NCBI GenBank assembly: GCA_016756835.1
Contig: JAESPE010000031.1
Span: 1-37,303, forward strand
Direction: 5' to 3'
Source: a gamma proteobacterium endosymbiont of Lamellibrachia anaximandri
Lineage (GTDB): Bacteria > Pseudomonadota > Gammaproteobacteria > Chromatiales > Chromatiaceae
DNA: 37,303 nt
This document shows, in pieces, positions 1,763 to 29,206 of this stretch (its first letter is position 1; each line of letters opens with the position of its first letter). A model generated the notes under the pieces. That model did no database searches, was not told the DNA's origin, and saw nothing but the letters and a program-made list of their open reading frames with translations. Both the position numbers and the translations under genes were made by a program.

Positions 1763-1854
1763 TTAGTGTCCATCCGGAAACAGATGAATAATTGTAGCCT
1801 GGATTACGCAAGCTCCATCCAGGCTACGGCAATTGGTTTCCGGACAGGCCCTAG
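1763..1854. repeat. Palindromic element family 1, copy A (short form)
   Basis: Ends in imperfect inverted repeats: TAGTGTCCATCCGGAAAC on the left, and GGTTTCCGGACAGGCCCTAG on the right. The interior is a single hairpin, from GTAGCCTGGATTACGC to CTCCATCCAGGCTAC. Copies B, C and D (5010, 6974, 15438) have two hairpins, so this 92-bp copy looks like a deletion derivative. The right end supplies the TAG stop codon of yggS (1851-1853). No coding capacity. Confidence 0.85.
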
Positions 1855-2549
1855 TTAACACTATTATACTGCCGGGGGCCAAAAATGGCCGTGCCGATGC
1901 GAACAATTGTAGCGCCCTCCAAAATTGCCGCCTCCAGATCGCCCGACATGCCCATCGAAAGGGTCTCCAGCGGCAGTGCATCGCTTCGCAGAGTGTCGCG
2001 CAGATTCCGCAGTAAGCGGAAGGGGCGGCGCTGTGCGGCTGCATCGTCCGTCGGTGCCGGGATGGTCATCAGTCCCATCACCTCGATGCCTGGCAGAGCT
2101 TGGTACGCCTTGATCAGTTCCGGCAGTTGTTCCGGTTCGTGGCCGCCCTTGCTGGCCTCCCCGCTGGTGTTGACCTGAAGGCAGATTTTCAGAGGCGGGC
2201 GTTCCGGGGGACGCTGTTCACCCAATCTTCGCGCGTGTTTCAAACTTGCGATACTGTGAACCCAGTCAAAATTTTCTGCGATGGGTTTTGTTTTATTACT
2301 CTGTATTCGACCGATGAAGTGCCATTCGAGTTTCAGGTCTGCAAGCGCATCGATCTTTTCCAGGGCATCCTGCAGATAGTTTTCGCCGAAGGCGATCTGC
2401 CCGGCGGCATACGCGGCGCGGATTTCGTCCGCCGTGCGGGTCTTGCTGACTGCCAGCAAAATGGTGCTGGCGGGTGTTCGTTCCGCCTGGTGCTCGGCCT
2501 GTTCGATGCGTTGCCGTACACGGGCGAGTCTCTGTTCGATGCTGCTCAT
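1851..2549 (-). CDS. yggS: YggS family PLP homeostasis protein
   Basis: Cytosolic pyridoxal-5'-phosphate-binding protein of the COG0325/PLPBP family, thought to buffer PLP and keep amino-acid and vitamin B6 pools balanced; no enzyme activity is established. 232 aa, single alanine-racemase-like TIM barrel. The PLP lysine is K36 in 'LLAVSKTR'. Other family blocks are 'FGENYLQDALEKI', 'WHFIGRIQSNKTK', 'LQVNTSGEASKGG' and the phosphate-binding 'LSMGMSGDLEAAI' followed by 'VRIGTAIFG'. The stop TAG and the base after it belong to a palindromic element, so the last residues ('NSVN') may not be ancestral. Divergent from pilT, as in Pseudomonas. Confidence 0.95.
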   Translation of the reverse strand: MSSIEQRLARVRQRIEQAEHQAERTPASTILLAVSKTRTADEIRAAYAAGQIAFGENYLQDALEKIDALADLKLEWHFIGRIQSNKTKPIAENFDWVHSIASLKHARRLGEQRPPERPPLKICLQVNTSGEASKGGHEPEQLPELIKAYQALPGIEVMGLMTIPAPTDDAAAQRRPFRLLRNLRDTLRSDALPLETLSMGMSGDLEAAILEGATIVRIGTAIFGPRQYNSVN

Positions 2550-2788
2550 GGTCGATAGTTTACAAAAAATTACATTCTGCCTGGGATTTTATGATCACAG
2601 CAGGATGTAAATGAAAGGGGTCTGTTTGAGAGTATGGGCAGTGTCGGCATAAATCAAATGCCTGCCGGCACGGAGTGGCGACAAACAATTTGTAGAAACC
2701 GGCGCAAGTGCCGTTATTATTGACGATAATAGATAAGCGGCGCTCTGAACAGGGTCGTCGCGCCGGTTTTTCTATCTGAGGGAAATGA
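2550..2788. promoter_or_regulatory. Divergent yggS / pilT intergenic region
   Basis: This 239-bp gap must hold the promoters of both operons. It is A/T-rich next to yggS and contains short dyads (for example GGC and GCC arms around GCAAGT near 2701-2712). A GAGGGAA Shine-Dalgarno lies just before the pilT ATG. I could not find a -35/-10 pair with good spacing that I would defend on either strand. Confidence 0.45.
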
Positions 2789-3823
2789 ATGGATATCGCC
2801 GAACTTTTGGCATTCAGTGTCAAACACAATGCGTCCGACCTGCATCTGTCCTCCGGACTGCCGCCGATGATCCGTGTGGATGGTGATATCCGGCGCATCA
2901 ATGTGCCGGCGCTGGAGCATAAAGTGGTCCACGGGCTTGTCTACGACATCATGAACGACAAGCAACGGAAGGATTTCGAGGAGTTTCTCGAGACCGATTT
3001 CTCCTTCGAGATTCCCGGGCTGGCCCGCTTTCGTGTCAACGCATTCAATCAGGCGCGGGGCGCATCTGCGGTTTTTCGTACCATCCCCTCCAAGGTACTG
3101 ACGCTGGAGGATCTGGGCTGTCCCGACTCTTTCAAGGAGATTGTAGACGTACCCCGTGGGCTGGTTCTGGTGACCGGGCCAACCGGTTCGGGTAAGTCCA
3201 CCACCCTGGCGGCGATGATGGACTACAAAAACGACAACGACTACGCTCACATACTCACCATCGAAGACCCCATTGAGTTTGTTCACACCAGTAAAAAGTG
3301 CCTGTTGAATCAGCGCGAGGTACATCGGGACACATTGGGCTTCAGTGAGGCGCTACGATCCGCCCTGCGTGAAGACCCGGACATTATCCTGGTGGGTGAG
3401 TTGCGTGACCTGGAGACGATCCGTTTGGCGATGACAGCGGCTGAGACCGGCCATCTGGTGTTCGGCACCCTGCATACCAGCTCTGCCGCCAAGACCATCG
3501 ACCGAATCATCGACGTGTTTCCCGCCGGGGAGAAATCGATGGTGCGCTCCATGCTGTCGGAATCGCTGCGGGCGGTTATTGCCCAGACGCTGCTGAAGAA
3601 GATCGGTGGTGGGCGTACCGCAGCCTGGGAGATCATGATCGGCACCCCGGCGATCCGTAATCTGATTCGTGAAGACAAGGTGGCGCAGATGTATTCGGCT
3701 ATTCAGACGGGTCAGGCAGCTGGTATGCAGACGATGGACCAGAGTCTGAAAGAGTTGGTGGAGAAGGGTGTGATCAGTCGTCTGGATGCCAAGGCCAAGG
3801 CGCAGAACAAAGATTCTTTCTAA
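2789..3823 (+). CDS. pilT: Type IV pilus retraction ATPase PilT
   Basis: Hexameric cytoplasmic ATPase that powers depolymerisation of type IV pili for twitching motility, surface sensing and DNA uptake. 344 aa, the usual PilT length. Visible motifs: N-terminal PAS-like domain (1-100, with 'ASDLHLSSG'), Walker A GPTGSGKS at 130-137, Asp box 'TIEDPIEF' at 157-164, Walker B 'DPDIILVGELRD' at 196-207 and His box 'AETGHLVFGTLHT' at 218-230. The C-terminal 'AIRNLIRE' retraction motif is intact. A GAGGGAA ribosome site supports this start. pilU follows after 46 bp in the same direction. Confidence 0.98.
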   Translation: MDIAELLAFSVKHNASDLHLSSGLPPMIRVDGDIRRINVPALEHKVVHGLVYDIMNDKQRKDFEEFLETDFSFEIPGLARFRVNAFNQARGASAVFRTIPSKVLTLEDLGCPDSFKEIVDVPRGLVLVTGPTGSGKSTTLAAMMDYKNDNDYAHILTIEDPIEFVHTSKKCLLNQREVHRDTLGFSEALRSALREDPDIILVGELRDLETIRLAMTAAETGHLVFGTLHTSSAAKTIDRIIDVFPAGEKSMVRSMLSESLRAVIAQTLLKKIGGGRTAAWEIMIGTPAIRNLIREDKVAQMYSAIQTGQAAGMQTMDQSLKELVEKGVISRLDAKAKAQNKDSF

Positions 3824-3869
3824 CGTAAAGTTAAGAAGGGATGGTGGAGTTTTCCAATGAGGAATGAAC

Positions 3870-4994
3870 ATGGAATTTAATGTGCTGCTGGCCATGATGG
3901 TCCAGAAAAAGGCATCCGATCTGTTTATTACGGTAGGCAGAGCGCCCTCCATCAAGGTGGATGGACGTATCGTCCCGGTCAGCAGGGCCGCAGTCAGCGC
4001 CAAACAGGCGAAGGACTACACCTTCAATATCATGACCGATCAGCAGCAGCGTGAATTCGATGAAACCAGTGAGTGCAACTTCGCCATAAGTGCCAAGGGT
4101 ATTGGACGTTTTCGTGTCAGCGCCTTTATGCAACGGGATTCGGTGGGCATGGTGCTGCGCCGCATCGAGAGCAATATCCCCACCATGGATGCGCTGCGCC
4201 TGCCGCCGGTGCTGCAGGATCTGGCGATGAGCAAACGTGGGCTGGTGATTTTCGTGGGGGCGACGGGTACCGGTAAGTCGACCTCCCTGGCCTCGATGAT
4301 TGGTCATCGCAACAACAAGAGCAGTGGCCATATCATCAGTATCGAAGATCCGATCGAATACATCCATAATCACGATGGCTGCATCATTACCCAACGTGAG
4401 GTGGGACTGGATACGGAATCCTACGAGGTTGCGCTGAAGAATACCTTGCGCCAGGCGCCGGATGTGATTCTGATTGGCGAGATTCGTACCCGCGAGACAA
4501 TGGAGCATGCGCTGACCTTTGCCGAAACGGGACATCTCTGTCTCTCCACCCTGCATGCCAACAATGCCAATCAGGCATTGGATCGAATTATTCACTTTTT
4601 TCCAGAAGATCATCGGGATCAGATCTTCATGGATCTTTCCCTCAATCTACGGGCGATTGTGGCCCAGCAACTGTTGCGGCGGTCGGATGGCAATGGTCGA
4701 CGGGCCTGTTTCGAGATTCTGCTGAATACTCCACTGGCGGCGGATCTGATTCGTAAAGGGGATATTCCAAAGCTGAAGGAGTTGATGAAGCGCTCCACGG
4801 AGCATGGCATGATCACCTTCGACCAATCTCTCTACCGACTTTATGAACAGGGTGAGATCAGCTATGAGGATGCGCTGGCACATGCCGACTCCACCAATGA
4901 TGTGCGCCTGATGATCAAACTTGGCATGAACAGGGGCAATGGAGGACTGGCCAACGGATTGGATGGCGTCTCGTTGATCGACGGGAAGGGGTAG
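3870..4994 (+). CDS. pilU: PilT-dependent retraction ATPase PilU
   Basis: PilT paralogue that in other species acts as an accessory motor giving PilT more force for pilus retraction. 374 aa. Walker A GATGTGKS (130-137), 'SIEDPIEY' (157-164), Walker B 'APDVILIGEIRT' and His box 'AETGHLCLSTLHA' (218-230) are intact. I start at the second of two nearby ATGs (3864, 3870): the GAGGA ribosome site abuts the first but is six bases from the second, and 'MEFNVLLAMM' matches the usual MEFxxLL start of PilU. It ends convergently with the 5157 gene, with repeat copy B between them. Confidence 0.96.
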   Translation: MEFNVLLAMMVQKKASDLFITVGRAPSIKVDGRIVPVSRAAVSAKQAKDYTFNIMTDQQQREFDETSECNFAISAKGIGRFRVSAFMQRDSVGMVLRRIESNIPTMDALRLPPVLQDLAMSKRGLVIFVGATGTGKSTSLASMIGHRNNKSSGHIISIEDPIEYIHNHDGCIITQREVGLDTESYEVALKNTLRQAPDVILIGEIRTRETMEHALTFAETGHLCLSTLHANNANQALDRIIHFFPEDHRDQIFMDLSLNLRAIVAQQLLRRSDGNGRRACFEILLNTPLAADLIRKGDIPKLKELMKRSTEHGMITFDQSLYRLYEQGEISYEDALAHADSTNDVRLMIKLGMNRGNGGLANGLDGVSLIDGKG

Positions 4995-5009
4995 CCTCTT
5001 ACAATTTAG

Positions 5010-5156
5010 TTAGTGTCTATCCGGTAACCAATAATTGTAGCCCGGATGGAGCTTGCGTAATCCGGGAACAGACTGTGAATCAGACACTTATCTCCCCGGA
5101 TTCCGCTGCGCTTCATCCAGGCTACAATTATTCATCTGTTTCCGGACGGACACTAG
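5010..5156. repeat. Palindromic element family 1, copy B
   Basis: 147-bp element. The left end TTAGTGTCTATCCGG and right end CCGGACGGACACTAG form terminal inverted repeats of about 18 bp. Inside are two GTAG-footed hairpins in inverted orientation (GTAGCCCGGATGG outward to the left, CCATCCAGGCTAC-type on the right, about 5037-5125). It fills the gap between convergent pilU and the 5157 gene; the latter's TGA directly abuts the terminal CTAG. It may serve as a bidirectional terminator. Confidence 0.88.
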
Positions 5157-5618
5157 TCACCTGTTTTCCGAGATAAATGCTTCGGCGATGGCATACTGCT
5201 TCTGCGCCTCGTTATCCACTTCTCCCGCATCGTTAAGAATCATTTCGCAGTTCTTGGCCATGCGCGCCTGAACAGCGGCTTTCCAGGCCAGATTGGTCTT
5301 GCTGTTGATCTGCCCCTCGGGCAGCAGACAGGCGGCAGCTGCGGCGGCGACGAAGTGCTCCGCCTGGATCGCCCAGTCCGCATCCCGGCCGCAGGCGGTG
5401 TAGGTCTGGTTCGAGAGCGCCTTGACCCCTTTGTAGGCGGACAACATCTCATCCGGCTGCCCACTCCTTTCAGCAATGACTTCAAGCGCCTGACCAATTC
5501 GCGGATCCTCACTGAGGTGGCGCACACTCACGACGAAGCGACAGCCCAAATTGCGCTGTTCGGTTGCCGGCAGTTCATCCAATACCTTGCGTAACTCCTG
5601 GTCGTTGCTGATTGCCAT
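5157..5618 (-). CDS. Hypothetical soluble protein
   Basis: 153 aa, family not recognised. No signal peptide or membrane segment. Largely helical and Ala-rich, with four Cys ('LGCRF', 'TACGRD', 'AACLLPEG', 'AKNCEM') that do not form a metal-binding motif. The first half ('QELRKVLDELPATEQRNLG') looks like a helical protein-interaction segment. A strong GGGAGGGG ribosome site precedes the ATG, so it is very probably expressed. It stands alone between pilU (convergent) and a 147-bp gap, and its stop codon touches the end of a palindromic element. Confidence 0.8.
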   Translation of the reverse strand: MAISNDQELRKVLDELPATEQRNLGCRFVVSVRHLSEDPRIGQALEVIAERSGQPDEMLSAYKGVKALSNQTYTACGRDADWAIQAEHFVAAAAAACLLPEGQINSKTNLAWKAAVQARMAKNCEMILNDAGEVDNEAQKQYAIAEAFISENR

Positions 5619-5765
5619 GGTGAACCCCTCCCGGAATGAGATTGCCGTCCTTTAAATAATAGGCCCGGAATCAGTAGTGGTCGCATGATTCAGATCAACG
5701 ATTCAACCATTAATTTAGGGCCGAGGGGCGAGGGCCAAGGGATCGAGTGAAATAGTCTGTTGGGT

Positions 5766-6320
5766 TTATCCTCTTTCGGAAAGGCGTTCGATAATGGCCT
5801 GATGTCCCTGGGTCCGAGCCCAGTCCAGTGCGCTGCGTCCTTTTAGATCACGCAGGCCGGGGTCGGCCTGATGAGTCAGCAGTGTTTCAACCGTCTCCCC
5901 GTGCCCCAGTTTGGCGGCCCAGATGAGGGCAGTCCAGCCGCCGGTGCTCTCTACCTGGTCGATGTTGGCCCCCCGTTTCAGCAGCAACCTGACCACGCGG
6001 GCATGGTTGTTCGATGCTGCCAGCATAACCGCTGAGTAGCCGCCTTTATCTGTGAGATTGACGTCGGCACCGGCACTCAGCAGACGTCCCACCGCTTCTG
6101 CATGTCCGTTGAGCGCTGCCTTCATCAGGGGGGTCCAGTGGCAGGCATCGACCACATCGATCGGGTGTTCCTGATCCAGCAGCCGGTCCAGTTCGGTCAT
6201 ATCCCCTTTCTCAGCGGCAGTGATCAGGGGCGGATTATCCGACTCGAAGACTGGCTCCTGTTGCGAACAGGCGGTGAGAAAAAGCGTCAGTGAGGCTAAC
6301 AAGAGCAGTGAGCGATACAT
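5766..6320 (-). CDS. Ankyrin-repeat lipoprotein
   Basis: 184-aa exported lipoprotein made almost entirely of ankyrin repeats. The start chosen gives a classical lipoprotein signal: 'MYRSLLLLASLTLFLTAC' with lipobox LTAC, lipidated Cys at residue 18, and an AGGA ribosome site upstream; the 34 residues that could be read further upstream have no signal character. After a short linker there are about five ankyrin units: a degenerate one ('LITAAEKGDMTELDRLL'), then 'WTPLMKAALNGHAEAVGRLL', 'YSAVMLAASNNHARVVRLLL', 'WTALIWAAKLGHGETVETLL' and 'RSALDWARTQGHQAIIERL'. Presumably a protein-binding scaffold at the inner face of the outer membrane or in the periplasm; partner unknown. Confidence 0.88.
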   Translation of the reverse strand: MYRSLLLLASLTLFLTACSQQEPVFESDNPPLITAAEKGDMTELDRLLDQEHPIDVVDACHWTPLMKAALNGHAEAVGRLLSAGADVNLTDKGGYSAVMLAASNNHARVVRLLLKRGANIDQVESTGGWTALIWAAKLGHGETVETLLTHQADPGLRDLKGRSALDWARTQGHQAIIERLSERG

Positions 6321-6404
6321 GGGGAATCCTGCAAAAACGGGAGTGCAGCAGTATCCATCCCGGTGTCGGGTGGCGGCAATGACGATCCGCAATGGCTGGG
6401 ATAT

Positions 6405-6491
6405 GTAGGCCGGATCAAGCATAGCGGATCCGGCACAGGCTGTTTGTGCATGGCATATTTCGCCTGATCCGCTGCGCTTGATCAGGCCTAC
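6405..6491. repeat. REP-like inverted pair (BIME), copy 1
   Basis: Two 30-nt GTAG-footed hairpins in head-to-head inversion, separated by 27 nt (6405-6434 and 6462-6491). The left stem is GCCGGATC with GATCCGGC, the right (on the reverse strand) GCCTGATC with GATCAGGC; both loops are an AAGCGCAGCG-type sequence (AAGCATAGCG in the left unit). Related copies lie at 17984, 27336 and 29118. It sits between the 5' end of the ankyrin lipoprotein gene and the 3' end of the DUF1820 gene. Confidence 0.9.
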
Positions 6492-6510
6492 GCTTGAGGA
6501 GAGTGTCCTG

Positions 6511-6840
6511 CTATTTTTCCGGCTTGCGGTCCGGTTTGAAGAAGGAGGTTGGGAAAGGTGTGATATTGGATTTTTCGTCCAGTTCCGTGATCTTGCCGGG
6601 TCCCTCTTTCTCGACTTCGTCGATGCGGATGACTGCGTGGATGGGTATCAGTGTGCGGTTGACGCCGGCAAACTCCTCCTGCAGCTTTTCCGAGGAAGGA
6701 TCAATGACCAGGGAATTTCTCTGTTCGAAGATGAGGTCTTCGACTTCCACGAACCCGTAAAGCTCGCCCTGCTGCACCTTCCGGGCAAAGACTTCATAAA
6801 CTTTGCCTTGATTGAGGAAGGTGATTTTGAAGATACGCAT
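6511..6840 (-). CDS. DUF1820 family protein
   Basis: 109-aa conserved proteobacterial protein of unknown function. The family signature is easy to see: 'MRIFKITFLNQGKVYEVFAR' at the N-terminus, then 'GELYGFVEVEDLIFE', 'LVIDPSSEKLQEEF' and 'IPIHAVIRIDEVEKEG', with a Pro-rich end ('ITPFPTSFFKP'). Probably a small soluble beta-rich protein. It starts only 40 bp after the tRNA-Thr on the same strand with no convincing terminator between, so it may be transcribed from the tRNA promoter and released by tRNA 3' processing. Its ribosome site is weak. Confidence 0.9.
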   Translation of the reverse strand: MRIFKITFLNQGKVYEVFARKVQQGELYGFVEVEDLIFEQRNSLVIDPSSEKLQEEFAGVNRTLIPIHAVIRIDEVEKEGPGKITELDEKSNITPFPTSFFKPDRKPEK

Positions 6841-6880
6841 TTTTGCCGTCGCTATGGCGGTTCCTGTAAGAACCTGAAAA

Positions 6881-6956
<76 letters not shown>

Positions 6957-6973
6957 ATAAAATTTTTCCAGTT

Positions 6974-7119
6974 TAGTGCCTGCCAGGAAAACAATTACCG
7001 TAGCCCGGATGGAGCTTGCGTAATCCGGGAGCAGGCTATAAATCAGCCACTTATCTTCCTGGATTCCGCTGCGCTTCATCCCGGCTACAATTATTCATCC
7101 GTTTCCGGTCAGACACCAG
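6974..7119. repeat. Palindromic element family 1, copy C
   Basis: 146-bp copy with diverged ends (left TTAGTGCCTGCCAGGAAAAC, right GTTTCCGGTCAGACACCAG). Both internal GTAG hairpins are retained, as is the central segment shared with copies B and D. It lies between the 3' end of thiO and the 5' end of tRNA-Thr, so the tRNA promoter must be inside it or in the 17 bp left over. It is the most diverged copy at the ends and probably the oldest. Confidence 0.85.
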
Positions 7120-7164
7120 CTTAACGACGGGCGATTATAGTCGCAGAATCCGGCCGGATCCAAT

Positions 7165-8256
7165 TCAATCCTCGCGGGGTGCATCCACGGCATAGGGCCT
7201 CGGGTCGAGAATCGGTTCTCGCTCCAGGATCACATCTGCCATCAGACGGGCAGAGGCGGGGGCCAACACCACGCCGTTACGGTAGTGGCCGGAATTGATG
7301 TAGAGGCCCTTGATTTCGGGTACCGGACCGATGTAGGGGATACCGTGCGGTGAACCTGGACGCAGTCCCGCCCAATGGTGCTCGATCCCGGCATCTTCAA
7401 GCACGGGGAAGTGCTGAATTGCGTACTTTTTCAGTTCCTCTCTGGCCTCGTTGGAGGTTGTTTTTTTGAAATCACTATGTTCCAGAGTACTGCCTACCAG
7501 AACCCTGCCATCCCGGCGGGGAATGACATAGCGGTTTTCGTGTAACACGATTCGCGAAACATCCCCCGGCTGGCCTTTGAAAAGGATCATCTGTCCCCGT
7601 ACCGGTGAGATATCCGGGGCCATTGGCATCGCCTGCAACAGGCGGCCACTCCAAGCACCGGCACAGACCACAACCCGGTCTGCCTCGAAATGGTCGCCGG
7701 CGGTTTTGATGCCGGTGATACGTCCATCCCGGACAAGCAGTTCGGTGACCTCTGCATCCTCGATGATTTTGACCAGGGGGGCGATGGTGAGCCTGGTTGC
7801 TTTTACCAGGCGCGGGTTGCGTATCTGGGCAACCCGCGGCATCCAGACTGCCGTTTCCGCTGTGGTTGCAAGGGCTGGTTCGCACTCCCTCGTCTCATGC
7901 CCGTTCAGCAACTGCAGCGTCTGTCCGGTCTCTTTTGCCCAGGCAGTTGCTTGCTTATCGTCACCCGGCTCAAGAATAAGCAGGCCATTTTGGGAGTATT
8001 CCGGGTCGATGCCGCTATCCTGGGTGAGCGAGCGGGCCAGATCCGCGTATTGGGATTGGCTCCAGCCGGCCAGTGCAGTGACCGAATCCGCATAGCGCCA
8101 GGGGTAGAGCGGGGAAACGATGCCGCCTCCTGCCCATGAGGATTCACGGCCGGTTTCCCTGCGTTCGATCAGCGTCACCCGCATGCCGGCGGATTGAAGT
8201 TCCCATGCGGTCAGCATACCGATGATGCCGCCGCCGATAATGAGACAATCACTCAT
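7165..8256 (-). CDS. thiO: Glycine oxidase ThiO
   Basis: FAD-dependent oxidase of the DAAO family, 363 aa. ThiO oxidises glycine to iminoglycine (dehydroglycine) for the thiazole moiety of thiamine. The N-terminal dinucleotide fold reads 'CLIIGGGIIGMLTAWEL' (GxGxxG at 8-13) followed by 'VTLIERRETGRESSWAGGGI', where the FAD-contacting 'SSWAGGG' is typical of ThiO. The C-terminal part has 'WAGLRPGSPHGIPYIGP' and 'LYINSGHYRNGVVLAP'. No other thi genes are nearby. Divergent from fimT with a 168-bp gap; a DAAO/ThiO gene also borders the fimT cluster in Pseudomonas aeruginosa. Confidence 0.93.
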   Translation of the reverse strand: MSDCLIIGGGIIGMLTAWELQSAGMRVTLIERRETGRESSWAGGGIVSPLYPWRYADSVTALAGWSQSQYADLARSLTQDSGIDPEYSQNGLLILEPGDDKQATAWAKETGQTLQLLNGHETRECEPALATTAETAVWMPRVAQIRNPRLVKATRLTIAPLVKIIEDAEVTELLVRDGRITGIKTAGDHFEADRVVVCAGAWSGRLLQAMPMAPDISPVRGQMILFKGQPGDVSRIVLHENRYVIPRRDGRVLVGSTLEHSDFKKTTSNEAREELKKYAIQHFPVLEDAGIEHHWAGLRPGSPHGIPYIGPVPEIKGLYINSGHYRNGVVLAPASARLMADVILEREPILDPRPYAVDAPRED

Positions 8257-8369
8257 GGATTACTGCCTTATGATTTCAGGTGCTATTCTTCGACTCCTCC
8301 CCCGCGCACCAGTGTCGACCGCTTCACAGTTCTGGATTTAGAGACGCCGTTTATCGGGAAATCGGTGCA

Positions 8370-8391
8370 GTTTATCCTGTTAGGGATAAAC
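8370..8391. promoter_or_regulatory. 8-bp perfect dyad upstream of fimT
   Basis: Arms GTTTATCC and GGATAAAC flank a TGTTAG spacer, ending 33 bp before the fimT ATG. It has the size of a dimeric regulator site, or a short hairpin in the leader. It is the only strong symmetry in the thiO/fimT divergent region. The regulator is unknown; in P. aeruginosa the equivalent operon is activated by AlgR, but this sequence is not an AlgR-type site that I recognise. Confidence 0.5.
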
Positions 8392-8424
8392 AGGCTCCAG
8401 GTTTTTGCTATAGAGAGTATCGAG

Positions 8425-8943: not shown

Positions 8944-8963
8944 AGTTGATGACGGGAATCGAA

Positions 8964-11229: not shown

Positions 11230-11250
11230 TTCGGGATGGATGAGGTTGTC

Positions 11251-15426: not shown

Positions 15427-15437
15427 CGCCGGGTTAA

Positions 15438-15582
15438 CTAGTGTCCATCCGGAAACCAGTTGCTGTAGCCCGGATGGAGCTTGCGTAATCCGGGAACAGT
15501 CTATGAATCAGCTGCTTATCTTCCTGGATTCCGCTGTGCTTCATCCAGGCTACAAATATTCACTTGTTTCCGGACGGACACA
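15438..15582. repeat. Palindromic element family 1, copy D
   Basis: 145-bp copy with well-kept ends (CTAGTGTCCATCCGGAAAC on the left, GTTTCCGGACGGACAC on the right) and both internal GTAG hairpins. It starts 11 bp after the stop of the PilY2-position gene, inside the pilus gene cluster, and together with the next repeat separates pilE from the upstream genes. Close similarity to copy B suggests both are recent. Confidence 0.88.
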
Positions 15583-15612
15583 AACTAATGGCTGCCCGGA
15601 AACTCAGCTCCA

Positions 15613-17962: not shown

Positions 17963-17983
17963 AACCGATAACACGTCGGGTCT

Positions 17984-18013
17984 GTAGGCCTGATCAAGCG
18001 CAGCGGATCAGGC
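17984..18013. repeat. REP-like hairpin, single unit
   Basis: One 30-nt unit with GTAG foot, stem GCCTGATC with GATCAGGC and loop AAGCGCAGCG, identical to the right-hand unit at 6462. Unlike the other three sites it has no inverted partner. It ends eight bases before the stop codon of the small cysteine-rich gene. Confidence 0.88.
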
Positions 18014-18020
18014 TTTGATA

Positions 18021-19668: not shown

Positions 19669-19673
19669 ATGTC

Positions 19674-21002: not shown

Positions 21003-21054
21003 GCGCTTCCCTGCGCTTGCCAACCATCCGGCAGGACGGAATTTTCTGAAAGTG

Positions 21055-21255: not shown

Positions 21256-21340
21256 AGATTTGCCTCTAAACTATATATAGGGTTGCCGGATTCAAAACCC
21301 GCTGGAATCCAAATTTAACGGCGTCGTTCGCCGGGAAAAA

Positions 21341-21361
21341 TAAGATATTAGCATTATCTTA
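21341..21361. promoter_or_regulatory. A/T-rich operator-like dyad
   Basis: Perfect 7-bp arms TAAGATA and TATCTTA around TTAGCAT, in the 132-bp divergent gap between the DUF2892 gene and the kinase-fusion gene. Size, A/T content and position next to a DUF2892 gene resemble winged-helix (ArsR/BigR-type) operators. The regulator gene is not in the window, so the identification is by analogy only. Confidence 0.5.
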
Positions 21362-21387
21362 TATTTAGTCAAGGACAAGTTTTTTGT

Positions 21388-22974: not shown

Positions 22975-22998
22975 GATAGAGATTGAGTCAAAACTGCC

Positions 22999-23313
22999 AT
23001 GAAATTTCCTCACCTTCCCATCGGTCAGCGTTTTCGTTTCCAAGACAAGCTCTACACCAAGACTGGTCCACTTACCGCGAGTGAGGAGGGGAGTGGCAAC
23101 AGCCGGCTGATGATGAAATCGGCGGAGGTCGAGCCGCTGGATTTGCAGGTTGAAAAAAAACCAAAAGGGGCGAGGTCATTCTCCCAGCAACAGGTCAGAG
23201 GCCTGTTCGATCAGGCCTGCCGGGATTTATTACAGGCCAATCCCGGTGACGAAACGAAACAGTTGCTTGAGGTGCTTCAGGCGGGGTTCTATCGTCGCCT
23301 GTCAGGTGGTTAG
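22999..23313 (+). CDS. Conserved hypothetical protein
   Basis: 104 aa; not assigned to a named family. Basic, soluble, with a beta-type first half ('LPIGQRFRFQDKLYTKTGPL') and a helical second half ('SQQQVRGLFDQACRDLL'). Conserved-looking 'FRFQDKLYTKTGP' suggests a small nucleic-acid or protein-binding fold, but this is a guess. Probably co-transcribed with the kinase fusion upstream. Its stop TAG is the first three bases of a 166-bp palindromic element. Confidence 0.75.
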   Translation: MKFPHLPIGQRFRFQDKLYTKTGPLTASEEGSGNSRLMMKSAEVEPLDLQVEKKPKGARSFSQQQVRGLFDQACRDLLQANPGDETKQLLEVLQAGFYRRLSGG

Positions 23314-23476
23314 GAGGCTGTCGGGTTTATCCGTTTGATGCGAAAATCACTGGGGGCGAATCAAATCAGTTTATCGAACGAGACGAATAGTGGACCTATT
23401 TAACGAGTTCGATAAGCTGAGTTGATCGTCATCCAGGGATTTGCAGCCAAACAGTGTTAAACCCGACAGTCTCCTA
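23311..23476. repeat. Palindromic element family 2 (MITE-like, 166 bp)
   Basis: Terminal inverted repeats of 19 bp with one mismatch: left TAGGAGGCTGTCGGGTTTA; the right end on the other strand is TAGGAGACTGTCGGGTTTA. A second, inner pair of arms (GTTCGATAA with CTGA and TTGAT blocks) makes most of the element foldable. No coding capacity. The outer TAG on each side is the stop codon of the flanking convergent gene (23311-23313 and 23474-23476). TA at both borders would suit an IS630/mariner-type target, but no transposase is present to test that. Confidence 0.85.
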
Positions 23477-24343
23477 GCTGGCAGCAATCAGAAAAACCCC
23501 GCCGAGCATTACCGTGCCTGCCAGCAGATGGCTGCGTAGACCGGTCTCACGAAAAATGAAGGCGCCGAAGAGGATGCCGAACAGCAGACTGGTGCGTTTG
23601 ACCGCAATCATATAGGCCACTTCCACCTGCTCCAGGGCGATGAAGTGGGTGATCAGCATGATCCCCATCAATCCTGCGACACCAAATACGGGCAGCGGTT
23701 TGCGCCAGATACGCCGGATCGATAGCGGTTTCATCAGCAGCGGCAGCAGTGCGGCGCCAACAAGGACGAAATAGAGCGGGCCGAACAGCTCCGGCGCCAT
23801 GTACTGCATGGCGCCTTTTCCTCCCACTGCGGTAAAGCTATAGAGAAAGGCAACACTCAGCATGGTAAGGGGGCCGGGGTTGTGAAAAATATGGGTCAGC
23901 GGGTTGACCCAGGTGCGCCACTCCCGCAATTCAGCCTGATTGAAATTCAGCAGCCAGGCCCCTGCCACAACCAGCAGAATGCCCATGAAACCGTCACCGC
24001 TGACCGACTCCCCCAACAGCAGATAGCCGACCAGGGTGACAAATACCGGGGTGAAGGCCAGATATGGCAGGGTTTGTGACAGAGGGTAGTCCCGGATCGC
24101 CCGGATATAGAGCAGCATCGCCAGGATCTCCAGCGGCACGATGGCGGCGACCCAGCCCCAGAAGACCCAGGGCAGTTCGGGAAAAGGTTGGCTCAACAGC
24201 AGCGGCGATACCAGCACTCCGGCCAGCGTCAGGCGCACGAAGGCCAGTTCCCGTGCCGAATAGTCGGAGAGTTTTGCTTTGGTCAGGGTATCAGCGGCGG
24301 CAAGACTGAAGGCACAGAACAGGGTGAGAGGAAACCAGTCCAT
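23474..24343 (-). CDS. EamA/DMT family transporter
   Basis: 289-aa inner-membrane protein with about ten hydrophobic segments and two EamA halves (about 5-135 and 150-285), as in the drug/metabolite transporter superfamily. Recognisable: 'AADTLTKAKL' near the first span, 'IRDYPLSQTLPYLAFTPVFV' at the end of repeat one, and 'VAYMIAVKRTSLLFGILFGA' in repeat two. Substrate unknown. It starts 14 bp after the Fur-type regulator gene, so they form an operon and the transporter may serve metal or stress physiology. Its stop codon is the end of a palindromic element. Confidence 0.88.
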   Translation of the reverse strand: MDWFPLTLFCAFSLAAADTLTKAKLSDYSARELAFVRLTLAGVLVSPLLLSQPFPELPWVFWGWVAAIVPLEILAMLLYIRAIRDYPLSQTLPYLAFTPVFVTLVGYLLLGESVSGDGFMGILLVVAGAWLLNFNQAELREWRTWVNPLTHIFHNPGPLTMLSVAFLYSFTAVGGKGAMQYMAPELFGPLYFVLVGAALLPLLMKPLSIRRIWRKPLPVFGVAGLMGIMLITHFIALEQVEVAYMIAVKRTSLLFGILFGAFIFRETGLRSHLLAGTVMLGGVFLIAAS

Positions 24344-24357
24344 TGCGGCTGGCTGGA

Positions 24358-24810
24358 TTAATAAGATACGGCGGTCTTTTCACGCACCCTGATTACGATA
24401 TCCACATCTTCAAGGATGGTGCCATGAGGAAGATCGCTCTCCACAAAGAAGGGATTCAGGTGTTCTTTGGCATCGATCAGGTCACCGGTGTCCACATTGT
24501 AGAAGTGGTGGTGGGGTTGGATATTGGAGTCGTAGAAGGTGCGGGATGAATCGACGAAGATCTCCCGCAACAGCCCCTTCTCAACAAACAGGCCCAGCGT
24601 GTTGTAGACAGTTGCCTTGGAGGCGCAACCTTGTCCCGTCTTCACGCTTTCATGGATCTGGTCAGCAGTCACATGCTGGTGCTTGGCAAAGAGTTTGCCG
24701 GCAATCGTAAGACGCTGCTGCGTGGGGTTGATCCCATACGCCCGCAGTCGCTGCTCCACATCTGTGGAGAAGGTTGCTGGAGGTGAGGATCCATACGCTT
24801 TCTCGATCAT
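24358..24810 (-). CDS. Fur-family regulator, Irr-like
   Basis: 150-aa ferric-uptake-regulator family protein. The winged helix spans about 15-85 ('INPTQQRLTIAGKLFAKHQH', 'SKATVYNTLGLFVEKGLL'). The metal and dimer domain has 'PHHHFYNVDTGDLID' (99-113). The HHH cluster and absence of CxxC zinc motifs resemble Irr, the heme-responsive branch, more than Fur, Zur or PerR; I name it only to family level. A sequence resembling half a Fur box (GAGAATGAT on the coding strand) lies upstream, consistent with autoregulation. First gene of an operon with the EamA transporter. Confidence 0.88.
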   Translation of the reverse strand: MIEKAYGSSPPATFSTDVEQRLRAYGINPTQQRLTIAGKLFAKHQHVTADQIHESVKTGQGCASKATVYNTLGLFVEKGLLREIFVDSSRTFYDSNIQPHHHFYNVDTGDLIDAKEHLNPFFVESDLPHGTILEDVDIVIRVREKTAVSY

Positions 24811-24813
24811 AAA

Positions 24814-24836
24814 GACAATTATAAATCATTCTCATC
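24814..24836 (-). promoter_or_regulatory. Possible Fur-type half-site upstream of regulator gene
   Basis: On the coding strand GAGAATGAT matches eight of nine bases of the GATAATGAT half of a Fur box; the second half is degenerate (TTATAATTG). The position, within 30 bp of the ATG, fits an operator or overlapping -10 (TATAAT-like). Weak evidence. Confidence 0.35.
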
Positions 24837-24857
24837 AGGAAAAGCGAAAACTGGAGG

Positions 24858-27245
24858 TTATCCAGTGGGTCTCTCCAGCAGATCCCTGTTGTCGATCACC
24901 ATCTGCCTGCCCAGGTGGAACCCAAGCACACGATAGGCCTCGAACTGCTTCTCATCGAAGAACTGGTCGGCAGTGGATTCATCGGGGAAGGCCGGATGGG
25001 CTTTTTTGTAGCCGAGAAGATCCTTTGGCACATCATGGACGTAGGTGGTTTTGATCAGGATCAGGGTGCCGTACTCATCGCTGCTTTTTACCCCCGGATA
25101 CTTGATTGTCGCACGGACATAACCGGCGTCGGCGTGTGGGATCTGTTTAGGATCTTTATCGTTGCACTGCTTGTTTGCCGATGGAATCAATGGATTCAGG
25201 CCATCTTCGAATTCAATGCGCACGCCAAAGTCGGTGCGGATCTTTTCGATGACGTTTGCAAGGTCGCCGAACTGAAAATCGGGATCGGCGGCGGCATCAC
25301 AGACAACGATCAGTTTCAGACGACGCCGGATCAACTCATAGATACCGAGGTTTTCAAAGTGGCCGCCGTCACTCAGTTGTAGAAAAGACTCTTTTTCCGT
25401 CAGTTTCTTCCATGGCAGCAGTGGCCAGCTTCCAGGAGAGAGAAAGTTAGGCACCCTGGCCCATCTGCGGCATTGAGGGTCGGGATTGCTTACCCATACT
25501 CCAAGGCCGAGATTCAGAAACACCATCAGCCGGGACAGCAGGGGCTGGCGGGTCGGACCCTCGCCGCCAACGCCGGTATTTGGGTTGGCTGCCGCCCCGG
25601 AGATCGCCATCGCGGTGGAGAGTGTCAGTTCTCCTCCCATATAGCTGTCGGTGCGGTGCCAGCCGGTGGCGTTGCTGCCGCAGTAGCGTGGTGACAGGAG
25701 AAAGTTGTCACCGCCCCGTCCACGGTATTTGTTCACACCCGACTCCACCAGGATCACGTTGCTGTTGATCAGGTGGTAGGGGCCGACTGCGGAATCATCC
25801 TTGTCCTTTGTATCCACCGGGCACATATCCTTTAGCGCGCCGACATCCGCCAGGGGTGATGCCTGAGAAGGCCCAGGGCTGCCGGCCAGAACGCGGCCGA
25901 CGTCCGGCAGATAGGACTCCATCAGGCGATCACGGTAGTAACGATGGATGGAGAGGTAGTTGATGCTGGCAAGCCATCCGAGAACGCTGGTGGCCACAAC
26001 CCCCCATGCCACCACCCATCCAATATGGTCGTTTTCGCTCGCGTCAATTCGGACTGCCATGTAGTAGGTACCGACGAAGAGTCCCAATGTGAGCAGCAGG
26101 GATGCAACAAAGGCGAGCAGGCCGGTAGAGAGCGTACCCTGCTCATCCTTGCCGGATTTGAAAAATGACCCCATCGCTGCAAGAACACCGCCGATGGTGC
26201 TCAACAGGGCCATTAATGGCCCTTTGTCATCCTTGGCAATAGCGATGGTGATGTCCGCACTGCCTGGCTCCGGATGCAGCAGTTTGGTAACCAGTTCGGC
26301 TAGGTCAGGCAGCCAGCCCAACAGCAGCAGCGCAGCGCCGAGGGCGAGCATGTAGGGCATCCATCTTTCATACTCCCGGCGCAACCTGTACCAAAAAGTC
26401 GCCGGCGACCATGCGCTTTTGTATGAAGGATTATCGACTTTGAAAGTCTTGCTCGACCAGCGGGTCAGACCGGCATACAGAATCGACAGGGCAAAGAAGG
26501 CGGTGAACAGTGCAAGCCCGCCAAAGGTAAATGCAGTAACGTCACCATAGATCTTGCCGGGGAAGACTGTATTGGTAAACCAATCGTTTGCAACCAATAG
26601 ATAGAAGATCAGCAGCAGCCAGGGAAGGAATACCAGAATACTGATGAACATGCCTCGCAGGATGACCCCGACCAGCGAGAGAAAGTTGATGCCGTCACCC
26701 GGTGTCAGGTAGTTACCGTGTTGACGCAGATAGCGCAGGATGGCGGCACCCCGGTAGTCGTCGCCACTGAGTTCAACATTGTCGTCTTTGCCTGCTCCAT
26801 TGTGCGGGTCTGCATCACGGTTACGCAGTTTTGTGCCGTAGGGAAAGTCATCTACGGAGACGCCGAAACGGATCTTGGGTGCGTTGGAGTCGTCATAATC
26901 CTCCTTACGCTGTTTTCCCTCTGCCCATTTGCTGTGCAGAATCCAGGTCAGTGATGAACCGATATAACCACCGCCGGAGACGGTGGAGAGATAGTCGAAC
27001 CGCTTCATGATGCCTTCGCGGGCCAATGCCTGCATCACGCCAAGACAGAAGGTGGCGGAGCGGATGCCGCCGCCGGAGAGGGCCAGTCCCGTCAGGTTTT
27101 TGTCTGTAGGTTCAGTCTGCTCGTAACTTTCACGCCGCTTGCTGATGTACTCATCCAGCTCCTCCTGCATGATCTTTACATCGGAGAAAGAGCCATCTCT
27201 ATTATGGTAAGGGAGATAGGGGTCTTTGGTGGCTTTCGCAGACAT
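24858..27245 (-). CDS. Patatin-like phospholipase with central membrane domain
   Basis: 795-aa protein in which a patatin lipase fold is split by a membrane block. The N-terminal part has the oxyanion loop 'LSGGGIRSA' (57-65) and the nucleophile elbow 'STVSGGGYIG' with Ser90; the elbow is TxSxG rather than the usual GxSxG. About six hydrophobic segments follow between 190 and 430 (for example 'GMFISILVFLPWLLLIFYLL'). The catalytic Asp is D626 in 'LSDGGHFENLG'. No signal peptide. The catalytic dyad is complete, so lipid acyl-hydrolase activity at the membrane is likely; substrate and purpose are unknown. No obvious operon partner. Confidence 0.85.
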   Translation of the reverse strand: MSAKATKDPYLPYHNRDGSFSDVKIMQEELDEYISKRRESYEQTEPTDKNLTGLALSGGGIRSATFCLGVMQALAREGIMKRFDYLSTVSGGGYIGSSLTWILHSKWAEGKQRKEDYDDSNAPKIRFGVSVDDFPYGTKLRNRDADPHNGAGKDDNVELSGDDYRGAAILRYLRQHGNYLTPGDGINFLSLVGVILRGMFISILVFLPWLLLIFYLLVANDWFTNTVFPGKIYGDVTAFTFGGLALFTAFFALSILYAGLTRWSSKTFKVDNPSYKSAWSPATFWYRLRREYERWMPYMLALGAALLLLGWLPDLAELVTKLLHPEPGSADITIAIAKDDKGPLMALLSTIGGVLAAMGSFFKSGKDEQGTLSTGLLAFVASLLLTLGLFVGTYYMAVRIDASENDHIGWVVAWGVVATSVLGWLASINYLSIHRYYRDRLMESYLPDVGRVLAGSPGPSQASPLADVGALKDMCPVDTKDKDDSAVGPYHLINSNVILVESGVNKYRGRGGDNFLLSPRYCGSNATGWHRTDSYMGGELTLSTAMAISGAAANPNTGVGGEGPTRQPLLSRLMVFLNLGLGVWVSNPDPQCRRWARVPNFLSPGSWPLLPWKKLTEKESFLQLSDGGHFENLGIYELIRRRLKLIVVCDAAADPDFQFGDLANVIEKIRTDFGVRIEFEDGLNPLIPSANKQCNDKDPKQIPHADAGYVRATIKYPGVKSSDEYGTLILIKTTYVHDVPKDLLGYKKAHPAFPDESTADQFFDEKQFEAYRVLGFHLGRQMVIDNRDLLERPTG

Positions 27246-27335
27246 TGTTCATTCCCTGGATTGGCTGTTATTCGGCATGGAGGCGTTTTGTTCCTCACTC
27301 ACAAGACTAGGTGAAAACCAGGTAATAAGAAAGAT

Positions 27336-27424
27336 GTAAGCCAGTTCAAGCGCAGCGGAACCGGCAATCCTGTTTGCCCCGTCCATCCGGTTGCGCCCGA
27401 ACCGCTACGCTTGATCGGGCCTAC
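27336..27424. repeat. REP-like inverted pair (BIME), copy 2
   Basis: Units at 27336-27365 and 27395-27424, head-to-head with a 29-nt spacer. Stem arms are GCCAGTTC with GAACCGGC (left) and GCCCGATC with GTTCGGGC (right, reverse strand); both differ from the 17984 unit in both arms. The right unit overlaps the 3' end of dusA by 20 bases. It lies between the patatin and dusA genes, both leftward. Confidence 0.88.
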
Positions 27425-28418
27425 ATGCGTGGTAGTTGGTTGACTCTTCCGGGACCAAAGCCGCCGCCTGCTGAATCAGCTCAGGGCCTGCGCCGGGGTT
27501 ATGGGCATGCTCACTGAGATGGCGGCGCCAGGCACGGGCGCCGGGACAGCCGTGAAAAAGTCCGAGGATGTGCCGGGTGATACGCTTGAGTGGAATACCT
27601 TTTTGGCACTGTAACTCAACAAATGGCAGGAGACTCTCCAGCACCTGATGACGGCTGGCTAGAGGTCGTGTATCGCCATAAAGACGGTGATCGGCTTGCG
27701 CCAGAATCCAGGGGTTGTGGTAGGCCTCGCGGCCGATCATCACACCATCGAGATCCTGCAGCAGCGCCTCAGTTTCAGCCAACGTCTTGATGCCGCCGTT
27801 GATGCTGAAACCCATCGCAGGAAAGTCCTGTTTGAGCTGCCTGACCACGTCATAGCGCAGCGGCGGGATATTCCGGTTCTCTTTGGGACTCAATCCCTGC
27901 AGCCATGCCTTGCGTGCGTGGATGATGAAATGGTCACAGCCCGCGCCGATCTGTGTCGCCACGAAGTTGCATAAGGCCTCGTAGCTGTCGTTGTCATCGA
28001 TACCGATACGCGTCTTCACCGTCACCGGAATCGAGACCGCCTCCTTCATCGATTGAACACACTCCGCCACCAGTTGAGGATATCCCAAAAGACAGGCGCC
28101 GATTTTGCCGTTCTGCACCCGGTCTGAGGGACAGCCCACATTGAGATTGACCTCGTCGTAACCGGCTTCTTCTGCTATCAGCGCAGCAGCGGCAAGGTCT
28201 TTCGGATCACTGCCCCCCAGCTGAATGGCGACGGGGTGCTCTGAGTCATCGTGCTCAAGAAAACGCGCTGCATCCCCATGCAGCAGTGCGCCGGTGGTGA
28301 TCATCTCCGTGTAGAGCAGGGCATGATGGGTAATCAGGCGCATGAAATAGCGCTGAAAACGGTCGGTGTAATCCATCATGGGGGCGATGGAGAGTGTGCG
28401 TTGAATAGAATCGGACAT
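27405..28418 (-). CDS. dusA: tRNA-dihydrouridine(20/20a) synthase DusA
   Basis: FMN-dependent enzyme reducing uridine 20/20a in the tRNA D-loop. 337 aa. Family blocks: 'LSIAPMMDYTDRFQRYFMRL' at the start, catalytic Cys96 in 'NLNVGCPSDRVQNG', 'VKTRIGIDD', 'HARKAWLQGLSPKENR' (typical of DusA), 'SINGGIKT' and 'GVMIGREAYHNPW'. The last six residues (CRPDQA) and the stop codon are encoded by a REP-like hairpin, so the natural C-terminus has been replaced or extended. No operon partner is evident. Confidence 0.96.
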   Translation of the reverse strand: MSDSIQRTLSIAPMMDYTDRFQRYFMRLITHHALLYTEMITTGALLHGDAARFLEHDDSEHPVAIQLGGSDPKDLAAAALIAEEAGYDEVNLNVGCPSDRVQNGKIGACLLGYPQLVAECVQSMKEAVSIPVTVKTRIGIDDNDSYEALCNFVATQIGAGCDHFIIHARKAWLQGLSPKENRNIPPLRYDVVRQLKQDFPAMGFSINGGIKTLAETEALLQDLDGVMIGREAYHNPWILAQADHRLYGDTRPLASRHQVLESLLPFVELQCQKGIPLKRITRHILGLFHGCPGARAWRRHLSEHAHNPGAGPELIQQAAALVPEESTNYHACRPDQA

Positions 28419-28493
28419 CTGCCCATTCTAACAACTGTTGGTGTGGGATCCCCCTCGGGGTTTTGAATCTCTTGTCGGGTTTGATTCCCAAAA

Positions 28494-28629
28494 TTTGGGG
28501 TCAGAGTAAAAACTTGCGTTTGATCGTGCCTGAGTCCTGAATTGTTACAATCCGAGATTAATTCATGGTTGACAAACAGACACAATCAAACGGTAGAAAA
28601 TCTGGAGATATGGGCTCTTGACCCCACGG
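28494..28629. repeat. GGGGTCA-ended inverted element, possible remnant
   Basis: Left end TTTGGGGTCAGAGTAAAAAC, right end on the other strand CCGTGGGGTCAAGAGCCC. Ends of this kind flank IS200/REP-associated tyrosine transposase units in many gammaproteobacteria; here only 136 bp without a gene remain. It lies between the start of dusA and the end of the next gene, nine bases from the latter's stop. Confidence 0.55.
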
Positions 28630-28637
28630 TCTCAGCT

Positions 28638-29015
28638 CTAACCAGCGGTTATCACGGCAAGGATTCTCTTGCCCTCTTTCTCATCCAGCGCCGCGAGACC
28701 CTTCTTTAGAATCAGACCTTCCAGCCTGGCGTGATAAGGGTCGGTTTTGGCCTGAGCGGACTTGATGAGATCCTCCTGTGATGCTTTCATCAGGCAGCGT
28801 GCAGCCTTCTTCTTGGCTTGCAGACGTTTTTGATCCCAGGCAGTCTGGACAAATCGCCATACTGGGGGGGATAACTTCTTTTCACCCCAATTGTTGAGGG
28901 TGACCCAATACTCCACGCCGCCTTGAACAAGGGGGAGTTGCTCAGGAGGGACGCCAATCTGGGTAGTCAGAAATGACTTCAGCCAGCGGCTGCTTTTGAT
29001 CTTTCTCTGCGCCAT
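28638..29015 (-). CDS. Hypothetical basic protein
   Basis: 125 aa from an internal ATG ('MAQRKIKSSRWLKSFL'); an ATG 12 codons earlier (29051) is possible, and neither has a clear ribosome site. Not a family I recognise. Lys/Arg-rich with a Trp-containing middle ('GGVEYWVTLNNWGEKKLSPP', 'VWRFVQTAWDQKRLQAKKK') and helical C-terminus. No signal or membrane span. The basic character could mean nucleic-acid binding. Flanked on both sides by repeats. Confidence 0.65.
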   Translation of the reverse strand: MAQRKIKSSRWLKSFLTTQIGVPPEQLPLVQGGVEYWVTLNNWGEKKLSPPVWRFVQTAWDQKRLQAKKKAARCLMKASQEDLIKSAQAKTDPYHARLEGLILKKGLAALDEKEGKRILAVITAG

Positions 29016-29117
29016 TTTAGTATCAGCTAATACAATTATCGATGTGGACATATTAAGCGTTGCGGCGAGGAATATCTGTAAAACTGTGTGACGCTTTGAC
29101 GGTAACCTGCTGGGCTT

Positions 29118-29206
29118 GTAGGCATGATCAAGCGTAGCGGATCAGGCAAAACGATTCGATACAACTATCGATATTTGCCGGCTCCGCTACGCTTGAGCCG
29201 GCCTAC
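29118..29206. repeat. REP-like inverted pair (BIME), copy 3
   Basis: Units at 29118-29147 and 29177-29206 with a 29-nt spacer. The right unit (reverse strand) has stem GCCGGCTC with GAGCCGGC, fully complementary although four of eight positions differ from the 17984 unit. Its GTAG foot provides the TAG stop of the metalloprotease gene (29203-29205). Confidence 0.9.

What the first reader, a model, noticed from the sequence alone, without database searches (positions are those of the whole stretch)
1763..29206. Three unrelated palindrome families all begin with TAG and supply stop codons to neighbouring genes
Family 1 (ends TAGTGTCC), family 2 (ends TAGGAG) and the REP-like units (GTAG foot) each read TAG when entered from either side. 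In this window the element's own bases form the stop codon of yggS, the 22999 gene, the EamA gene and the metalloprotease gene; dusA enters a unit and stops at its internal TAG. Seen: the coordinates coincide exactly. Inference: insertion favours CTAG/TAG sites, which are rare inside genes and common at stops, or insertions are tolerated only where they terminate translation cleanly. Either way it would be a general rule of how these genomes space their genes.
Basis: partly seen in the sequence, partly recalled or inferred. Interest (0 to 1): 0.72.

Follow-up and report, generated by a model that had tools for sequence, protein, structure and literature searches.

The report
Mobile hairpins landing on stop codons
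Small hairpin-shaped mobile elements in this genome sometimes sit exactly on gene stop signals, mainly because their preferred landing site contains the stop signal and rebuilds it after landing, while another repeat type sometimes takes over as the stop.

Summary
The coincidences are real and exact, but they have two causes, and the two MITE families do not supply the stops.

Family 2 is a 166-nt hairpin MITE of an IS1182-family insertion sequence. It inserts at TA, mostly within CTAG, and duplicates the TA. Duplicated TA plus the element's first base G reads TAG on both strands and in either orientation. In 31 of 32 element-free orthologous gene ends the stop already stood at that codon. CTAG is 11-fold depleted here, and 29 of 141 non-coding CTAGs are stops. 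In the genus this target bias suffices: 7 of 59 edges at stops against 29 of 273.

Family 1 is a MITE with a 6-bp TANNTA duplication; the logic is the same, with fewer empty sites.

REPs differ: nine gene ends in the sample stop inside a REP, and in several, relatives show that the native stop was lost and the REP took over (dusA). That GTAG REPs often provide TAG stops is published (PMC3733652).

No general gene-spacing rule is needed. A modest excess at stops in a cross-genus set (11 of 61 against 22 of 298) remains open.

The parts
1760..1857 (.). Family 1 MITE, short copy: 6-bp duplications TAGTTA at 1760-1765 and 1852-1857, element 1766-1851; yggS stop TAG at 1853-1851(-) = duplicated TA plus terminal G
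   Evidence: orthologue G003 has TAA at the same codon
5007..5159 (.). Family 1 MITE: TSD TAGTTA 5007-5012, element 5013-5153, TSD TAGTCA 5154-5159; the TGA stop of gene 5157-5618(-) lies in the right TSD copy
   Evidence: G002-G005 lack the element here, G001 carries it
6970..7122 (.). Family 1 MITE with degenerate edges, next to a tRNA gene; no stop coincidence
15435..15587 (.). Family 1 MITE: TAACTA 15435-15440, element 15441-15581, AAACTA 15582-15587; no stop coincidence; element-free in G002 and G004
23311..23476 (.). Family 2 MITE (IS1182-type ends GGAG[GA]CTGTCGGGTTTA), TA duplication 23311-23312 and 23475-23476; forms TAG stops of both convergent neighbours; near-perfect 166-nt hairpin
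   Evidence: inverted in situ in G004, 165 of 166 identical
22999..23313 (+). Small gene without Pfam match whose TAG is duplicated TA plus element G
23474..24343 (-). EamA transporter gene, stop TAG at the other edge of the same element; TAA at this codon in the G002 empty site
6404..6492 (.). REP pair, GTAG feet outward; absent in G002, G003, G005, present in G004; not at a stop
17983..18013 (+). Single REP unit
27335..27425 (.). REP pair; dusA reads through the right foot out of frame and stops at the internal TAG 27407-27405
27405..28418 (-). dusA (Dus), C-terminus extended into the REP: 6 codons longer than in G001, G002, G005, 12 longer than in G003; same end in G004
29117..29207 (.). 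REP pair; right foot TAG 29205-29203 (or its remnant) is the aminopeptidase stop in all six genus genomes
29203..30135 (-). Putative aminopeptidase gene (Aminopep), ends in a REP foot

Best explanation
Two mechanisms give the same picture. (1) Families 1 and 2 are transposase-less miniature transposons that land on a short target ending in TA and duplicate it: family 2 on the TA of CTAG (IS1182-type), family 1 on TANNTA. Their first base on both ends is G, so duplicated TA plus G reads TAG on whichever strand enters. When the target TA belongs to an existing TAA or TAG stop, the stop is kept (TAA becomes TAG) for a gene on either side and for either orientation of the element. Because CTAG is very rare inside genes, a sizeable share of tolerated sites are stop codons. 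(2) GTAG REPs sit mostly just beyond gene 3' ends. When small deletions or substitutions remove the native stop, the foot TAG or the internal GCGTAG is the next in-frame stop, so the REP becomes the stop and the protein gains or loses a few residues. Shown: exact positions, empty sites, target duplication, parent IS of family 2, depletion of CTAG, changed C-termini. Inferred: that harmlessness at stops is what lets these insertions persist, and that the REP captures followed loss of the native stop rather than insertion exactly there.
For: Empty sites: EamA in G002 reads GCCAGC-TA-ACCACC where G000 and G004 have the element between two TAs; the C196 element (L033) is absent from G001 and G003, where one CTCTAGGG is the TAG of both convergent genes. 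Stop at the same codon in 31 of 32 element-free orthologous ends for the 7 family 2 stop edges. The element lies inverted at the same TA in G004 with both stops kept. Parent IS: 10 copies of 1565 bp in G005, 10 of 10 flanked by TA on both sides, 9 of 10 at CTAG, 2 of 10 at a stop; transposase NF033551 IS1182, 363 bits against cut-off 270; empty CTC-TA-GGCC site in G000 for one of them. Family 1 duplication: over 16 sites 68 of 96 bases match between sides, shuffled mean 57.0, p = 4e-4; middle two bases 22 of 32 against 10.8. Expected rate: CTAG edges 29 of 273 at stops against family 2 7 of 59 (7 of 60 with one site I had dropped). REP takeover: native stops 12-36 nt further upstream in relatives at dusA (G001, G002, G003, G005), at C187:63462 (G002-G004, without the REP) and at both genes of the C46:43096 pair.
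Against: In the cross-genus set family 2 edges are at stops more often than CTAG supply predicts: 37 of 172 against 22 of 298 (OR 3.4). That set required an intact TAG, which favours edges under selection as stops, but partner edges without that requirement still give 11 of 61 (p = 0.014). Family 1 also exceeds its null (4 of 35 against 16 of 649). Two of 30 family 2 elements sit on a stop shared by both neighbours, while such double sites are 0 of 259 CTAGs and 2 of 1167 non-coding YTARs sampled. At the parent-IS copy L477 the element-free relatives have TGA, not a TA-containing stop, at that codon, so a prior change to TAG must be assumed. For the aminopeptidase and L015R no element-free relative was found, so preservation and supply cannot be told apart. 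At C46:41496 the stop stood at the same codon in all five relatives without a REP foot there, so that REP case is preservation, not takeover.
Confidence: 0.85

Rival explanations
1. Elements supply new stops: insertion truncates or extends genes, and only insertions that end translation cleanly survive.
For: Fits several REPs: dusA, C187:63462 and both genes of the C46:43096 pair have earlier native stops in relatives.
Against: For family 2, 31 of 32 element-free orthologous ends have the stop at the same codon; 52 of 59 family 2 edges in the genus are not at stops and persist.
Confidence: 0.15
2. The transposase actively seeks stop codons or 3' ends, beyond the CTAG motif (for example through convergent transcription or local structure).
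For: Excess in the cross-genus set: 37 of 172, partners 11 of 61, against 22 of 298 CTAG edges; among 3'-facing edges 37 of 87 against 29 of 126.
Against: The ten parent-IS copies show 2 of 10 at stops and the genus set 7 of 59, both near CTAG expectation. Survivorship and ascertainment can make the excess.
Confidence: 0.12
3. Pure coincidence: elements lie in short intergenic gaps and a TAG at the edge hits a stop by chance.
For: Most edges do not coincide; the genus-level family 2 rate equals the CTAG rate.
Against: REP feet: 6 exact against about 0.6 expected, none at 1-6 nt. Family 1 p about 0.015. Empty sites show insertion into the stop codon itself.
Confidence: 0.05

Closest known systems
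GTAG-class REPs (Di Nocera et al. 2013, PMC3733652; passages, section 15)
   Same: GTAG foot, head-to-head pairs; for the families it diagrams, convergent REPs mostly <20 bp from gene 3' ends; it states that GTAG REP termini often provide the TAG stop to flanking ORFs.
   Different: Here orthologues show how some arose: earlier native stop lost, then the foot or the internal TAG used.
IS1182-family insertion sequences and their MITEs
   Same: Parent transposase passes NF033551 and shares its ends with family 2.
   Different: What is stressed here is the CTAG target and silent insertion into stop codons. Search 'IS1182' with 'CTAG' listed two papers with one mention of each term, which I did not open; 'IS1182', 'MITE', 'stop codon' listed none.
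MITEPsy1 of Pseudomonas syringae (PMC3189936; passages)
   Same: 100-nt MITE inserting at CTAG or YTAA with target duplication.
   Different: 4-nt duplication and different ends; the passages seen mention no stop-codon effect of it.
QMITE2 of Coxiella burnetii (PMC5896051; passages)
   Same: MITE containing a GTAG REP, mainly in 3' untranslated and intergenic regions, as family 1; one gene end is extended by it.
   Different: 7-11 nt direct repeats of variable sequence, not TANNTA.

Membership tests
IS1182-derived MITE (family 2) | Parent element with IS1182-family transposase | tested here: met
   NF033551 363.4 bits, cut-off 270; DDE_Tnp_1 and DUF772
IS1182-derived MITE (family 2) | Terminal inverted repeats shared with the parent IS | tested here: met
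   Parent ends GGAGTCTGTCGGATTTA / GGAGTCTGTCGGGTTTG against GGAGGCTGTCGGGTTTA / GGAGACTGTCGGGTTTA
IS1182-derived MITE (family 2) | Same target duplication as the parent | tested here: met
   TA duplication, CTAG preferred, in both
IS1182-derived MITE (family 2) | Mobilised by that transposase in trans | not testable with these tools
   needs a transposition assay
MITE (family 1) | Terminal inverted repeats and target duplication, hairpin, about 150 bp | tested here: met
   ends GTGTCC[AG]TCCGGAAAC, 6-bp duplication, hairpin z -10.2
MITE (family 1) | Autonomous parent with the same ends | tested here: inconclusive
   No pair of these ends more than 400 bp apart within 1.5 kb of 30 of the 36 exact matches in six genomes; a parent may exist elsewhere
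IS630/Tc1 type (considered for family 1) | 2-bp TA duplication | tested here: not met
   duplication is 6 bp; the 2-bp rule is recalled
GTAG REP | GTAG foot followed by a palindrome, high copy, inverted pairs | tested here: met
   304 matches in the genome with up to 3 mismatches, 0 for the reversed control pattern
GTAG REP | RAYT gene flanked by the same REP type | tested here: inconclusive
   Y1_Tnp matches in 6 of 6 genomes; the C90 gene is flanked by GTAGCCGCGATG units, not by this type; no other of the loci checked has it

The most novel reading that the evidence does not exclude
Ends that read G after a duplicated TA are a safe-landing device: by aiming at CTAG, which selection or mutation keeps out of genes, and by rebuilding TAG on both strands and in both orientations, these elements use stop codons as neutral landing pads. 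Stop-codon sites would then be over-represented beyond target supply across many gammaproteobacteria.
Probability: 0.2. Interest if true: 0.6.

Novelty: new member of a known kind. Interest (0 to 1): 0.42.

Why it matters
It explains why small mobile hairpins abut stop codons and shows that two processes hide behind one look: stop-preserving insertion by TA-target transposons and stop takeover by REPs. Annotators gain a caution: a TAG inside a repeat is not proof that the repeat changed the protein. The CTAG target makes a simple prediction for where such IS1182-type elements can land without cost.

Tried and rejected
Rejected: one common rule for all three families (causes differ). Rejected: that 4 family 2 elements at stops among the 14 loci of the window's own genome shows targeting of stops; adding five same-genus genomes gave 7 of 59 edges, equal to CTAG supply. 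Rejected: a 4-bp CTAG duplication for family 2, because sites flanked CTA..TAA show that only TA is duplicated. Rejected: a 2-bp duplication for family 1. Rejected: long TIR pairs in the cross-genus loci as parent ISs; 5 of the 9 pairs over 500 bp were looked at and held no open frame that I took for a transposase, judged by eye. The DUF4096 transposase family gave 0 of 6 genomes. Rfam found only a tRNA in the window. The family 1 duplication test was run three times: one search had an off-by-one at the yggS site, one search mended it, and one search removed L177, which is the orthologue of L005.

Rows dropped before counts: the family 2 genus count leaves out copies matching less than 120 nt of the query, edges without a recognisable end, the rows that got no locus, and five loci taken as repeats of one site. 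Four of these five are repeats (L137, L152, L159, L160); L154 is a separate site with one non-stop edge and was wrongly dropped, which makes 7 of 60. Family 1 (33 edges plus the two yggS-element edges) leaves out 12 loci taken as the same or orthologous copies. A different family 1 set, exact ends only and either core, gave 3 of 24 edges at stops. The cross-genus set uses the 116 stretches at which the scan stopped, so more exist, and one gene model trained on this genome. Gene ends come from my own gene finder, not from curated annotation; whether an orthologue is element-free was judged by eye, and part of the output was cut (aminopeptidase and dusA rows, covered).
Full report
What was checked. 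Pfam matches four of the proteins; gene 22999 has no match. The window is contig C189 of a 4.14-Mb genome in 263 contigs. Two same-genus genomes match named contigs, one by length (G003:C4, 232250 bases, QFXE01000020.1, endosymbiont of Escarpia spicata) and one by the positions of its element ends (G002:C49, QGON01000018.1, endosymbiont of Escarpia laminata). So the window probably comes from a close relative of tubeworm endosymbionts; this is an inference.

Family 2. The query 23311-23476 finds about ten near-full copies in the genome and more in five same-genus genomes. The window copy folds as a near-perfect hairpin (-87.5 kcal/mol, z -12.7). Between the two sides of a copy only TA repeats. 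At EamA, relative G002 has the empty site GCCAGC-TA-ACCACC, and G004 carries the element inverted at the same TA, 165 of 166 bases identical. A parent was found in the complete relative G005: ten copies of a 1565-bp IS, nine identical over their length and the tenth in the opposite orientation and not compared; ten of ten are flanked by TA on both sides, nine at CTAG. Its transposase passes the NCBIfam IS1182 model. One of these sites is empty in the window's own genome as CTC-TA-GGCC. At another copy (L477) the gene's stop is TGA at the same codon in the element-free relatives, so the stop must have become TAG before insertion.

Why stops. CTAG occurs 259 times in 771 kb where base composition predicts 2875; 118 are inside genes, 29 at stop codons, 112 intergenic. 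Duplicated TA plus the element's first G reads TAG on both strands, so an insertion into the TA of a TAA or TAG stop leaves a stop at the same codon for a gene on either side. This was tested on the seven family 2 stop edges found: EamA 4 of 4 element-free relatives with the stop at the same codon, gene 22999 3 of 4 (G001 ends two codons earlier), L031R 5 of 5, L033L 5 of 5, L033R 5 of 5, L037L 5 of 5, L150R 4 of 4, together 31 of 32. At L033, relatives G001 and G003 show a single CTAG that already served as TAG for both convergent genes.

Is there an excess? In the genus, 7 of 59 family 2 edges are at stops against 29 of 273 non-coding CTAG edges (OR 1.13, p 0.82; 7 of 60 with a wrongly dropped site), and 2 of 10 parent-IS copies are at a stop. 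There 37 of 172 edges are at stops against 22 of 298 CTAG edges (OR 3.4). That set requires TAG at the edge, which favours edges kept by selection; partner edges without the requirement give 11 of 61 (p 0.014). I read this as survivorship plus remaining bias, but do not exclude targeting.

Family 1. Ends are GTGTCC[AG]TCCGGAAAC, and the target duplication is 6 bp, TANNTA: 68 of 96 bases agree between the two sides of 16 sites against 57.0 when sides are shuffled (p 4e-4), and four sites agree perfectly, the yggS site among them. The same ends enclose either a core of GTAGCC..GGAT REP-like units or a different core with ACCACAAAGGACACGAAG; no version with ends more than 400 bp apart was seen in the 30 loci held. 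Four of 35 edges are at stops against 16 of 649 TANNTA edges; a second set of exact ends gives 3 of 24, one of them the L012 site again. For yggS, G003 has TAA at the same codon, G005 keeps a remnant of the end, and G002 runs on into another repeat; G001 and G004 were not in the stretches held. For L178R, G002 has TAA and G004 TAG at the same codon; for L012L, G002 has TGA there; for L015R every relative keeps something like a remnant of the end, so no empty site is known.

REPs. The pattern finds 304 matches in the genome with up to three mismatches and none with the reversed control. In the 771-kb sample 88 units were found; 56 feet face a gene 3' end, 6 have the foot TAG as stop, 3 stop at the internal TAG, none lie 1-6 nt off. 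Orthologues of these nine ends: dusA ends 6 codons earlier in G001, G002 and G005 and 12 earlier in G003 (G001 has REP units beyond its own TGA; G004 ends as here). C187:63462 ends 12 nt earlier in G002-G004, which lack the REP, and at the foot in G001 and G005. At the C46:43096 pair the left gene ends 27 nt earlier in G002, G003 and G005 (G005 has a REP beyond that stop) and the right gene 18 and 12 nt earlier in G002 and G003. At C1:112296, G001 and G005 have TAA 6 nt later with the REP further on. At C46:41496 all five relatives have a stop at the same codon without a foot there, and G004 and G001 have the REP about 16 and 41 nt downstream. At C231:53468 the stop is unchanged in three of five relatives; at C231:-18820 and the aminopeptidase gene all five carry the foot or a remnant. 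So REPs do take over as stops in several cases, probably after small deletions or substitutions; the order of events is inferred. That GTAG REPs often provide TAG stops was already stated in 2013 (PMC3733652, section 15).

Verdict. Families 1 and 2 keep existing stops because their target contains the stop's TA (well shown for family 2, by fewer cases for family 1); REPs sometimes replace a lost stop, an outcome already published. A universal rule of gene spacing is not supported. Remaining puzzles are the cross-genus excess, the family 1 excess and the two family 2 elements on stops shared by both neighbours. Statements about IS630 duplication length are recalled, not taken from a call.

Noticed in passing
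window 23311-23476 against L137 (G004): The same family 2 copy lies inverted at the same TA in relative G004, 165 of 166 bases identical, with both flanking stops kept; in-place inversion through its inverted repeats is the simplest reading.
   Followed up: partly
L012, L210, L231 (one site in G000, G001, G004) and the L015 site: Family 1 ends stay at one site in several relatives while the core between them differs (REP core or ACCACAAAGGACACGAAG core), as if cores were swapped.
   Followed up: partly
window 27335-27425 and orthologous spots in G001, G002, G005: The 3' flank of dusA holds different repeats in different relatives (this REP type, or a GTAGGTCGGGTTAG repeat), a likely insertion hot spot.
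   Followed up: no
yggS end in G002: yggS reads past its usual stop there and the next in-frame stop is the TAG of a GTAGGTCGGGTTAG repeat, another repeat type giving a stop.
   Followed up: no
771-kb sample of the genome: CTAG is about 11-fold rarer than base composition predicts (259 against 2875).
   Followed up: partly
L471-L480 (G005): Ten copies, nine of them identical, of a 1565-bp IS1182-family element in one complete relative: probably a recent burst.
   Followed up: yes
C231:53468 and C46:43096: Single REP pairs between convergent genes provide the stops of both genes.
   Followed up: partly
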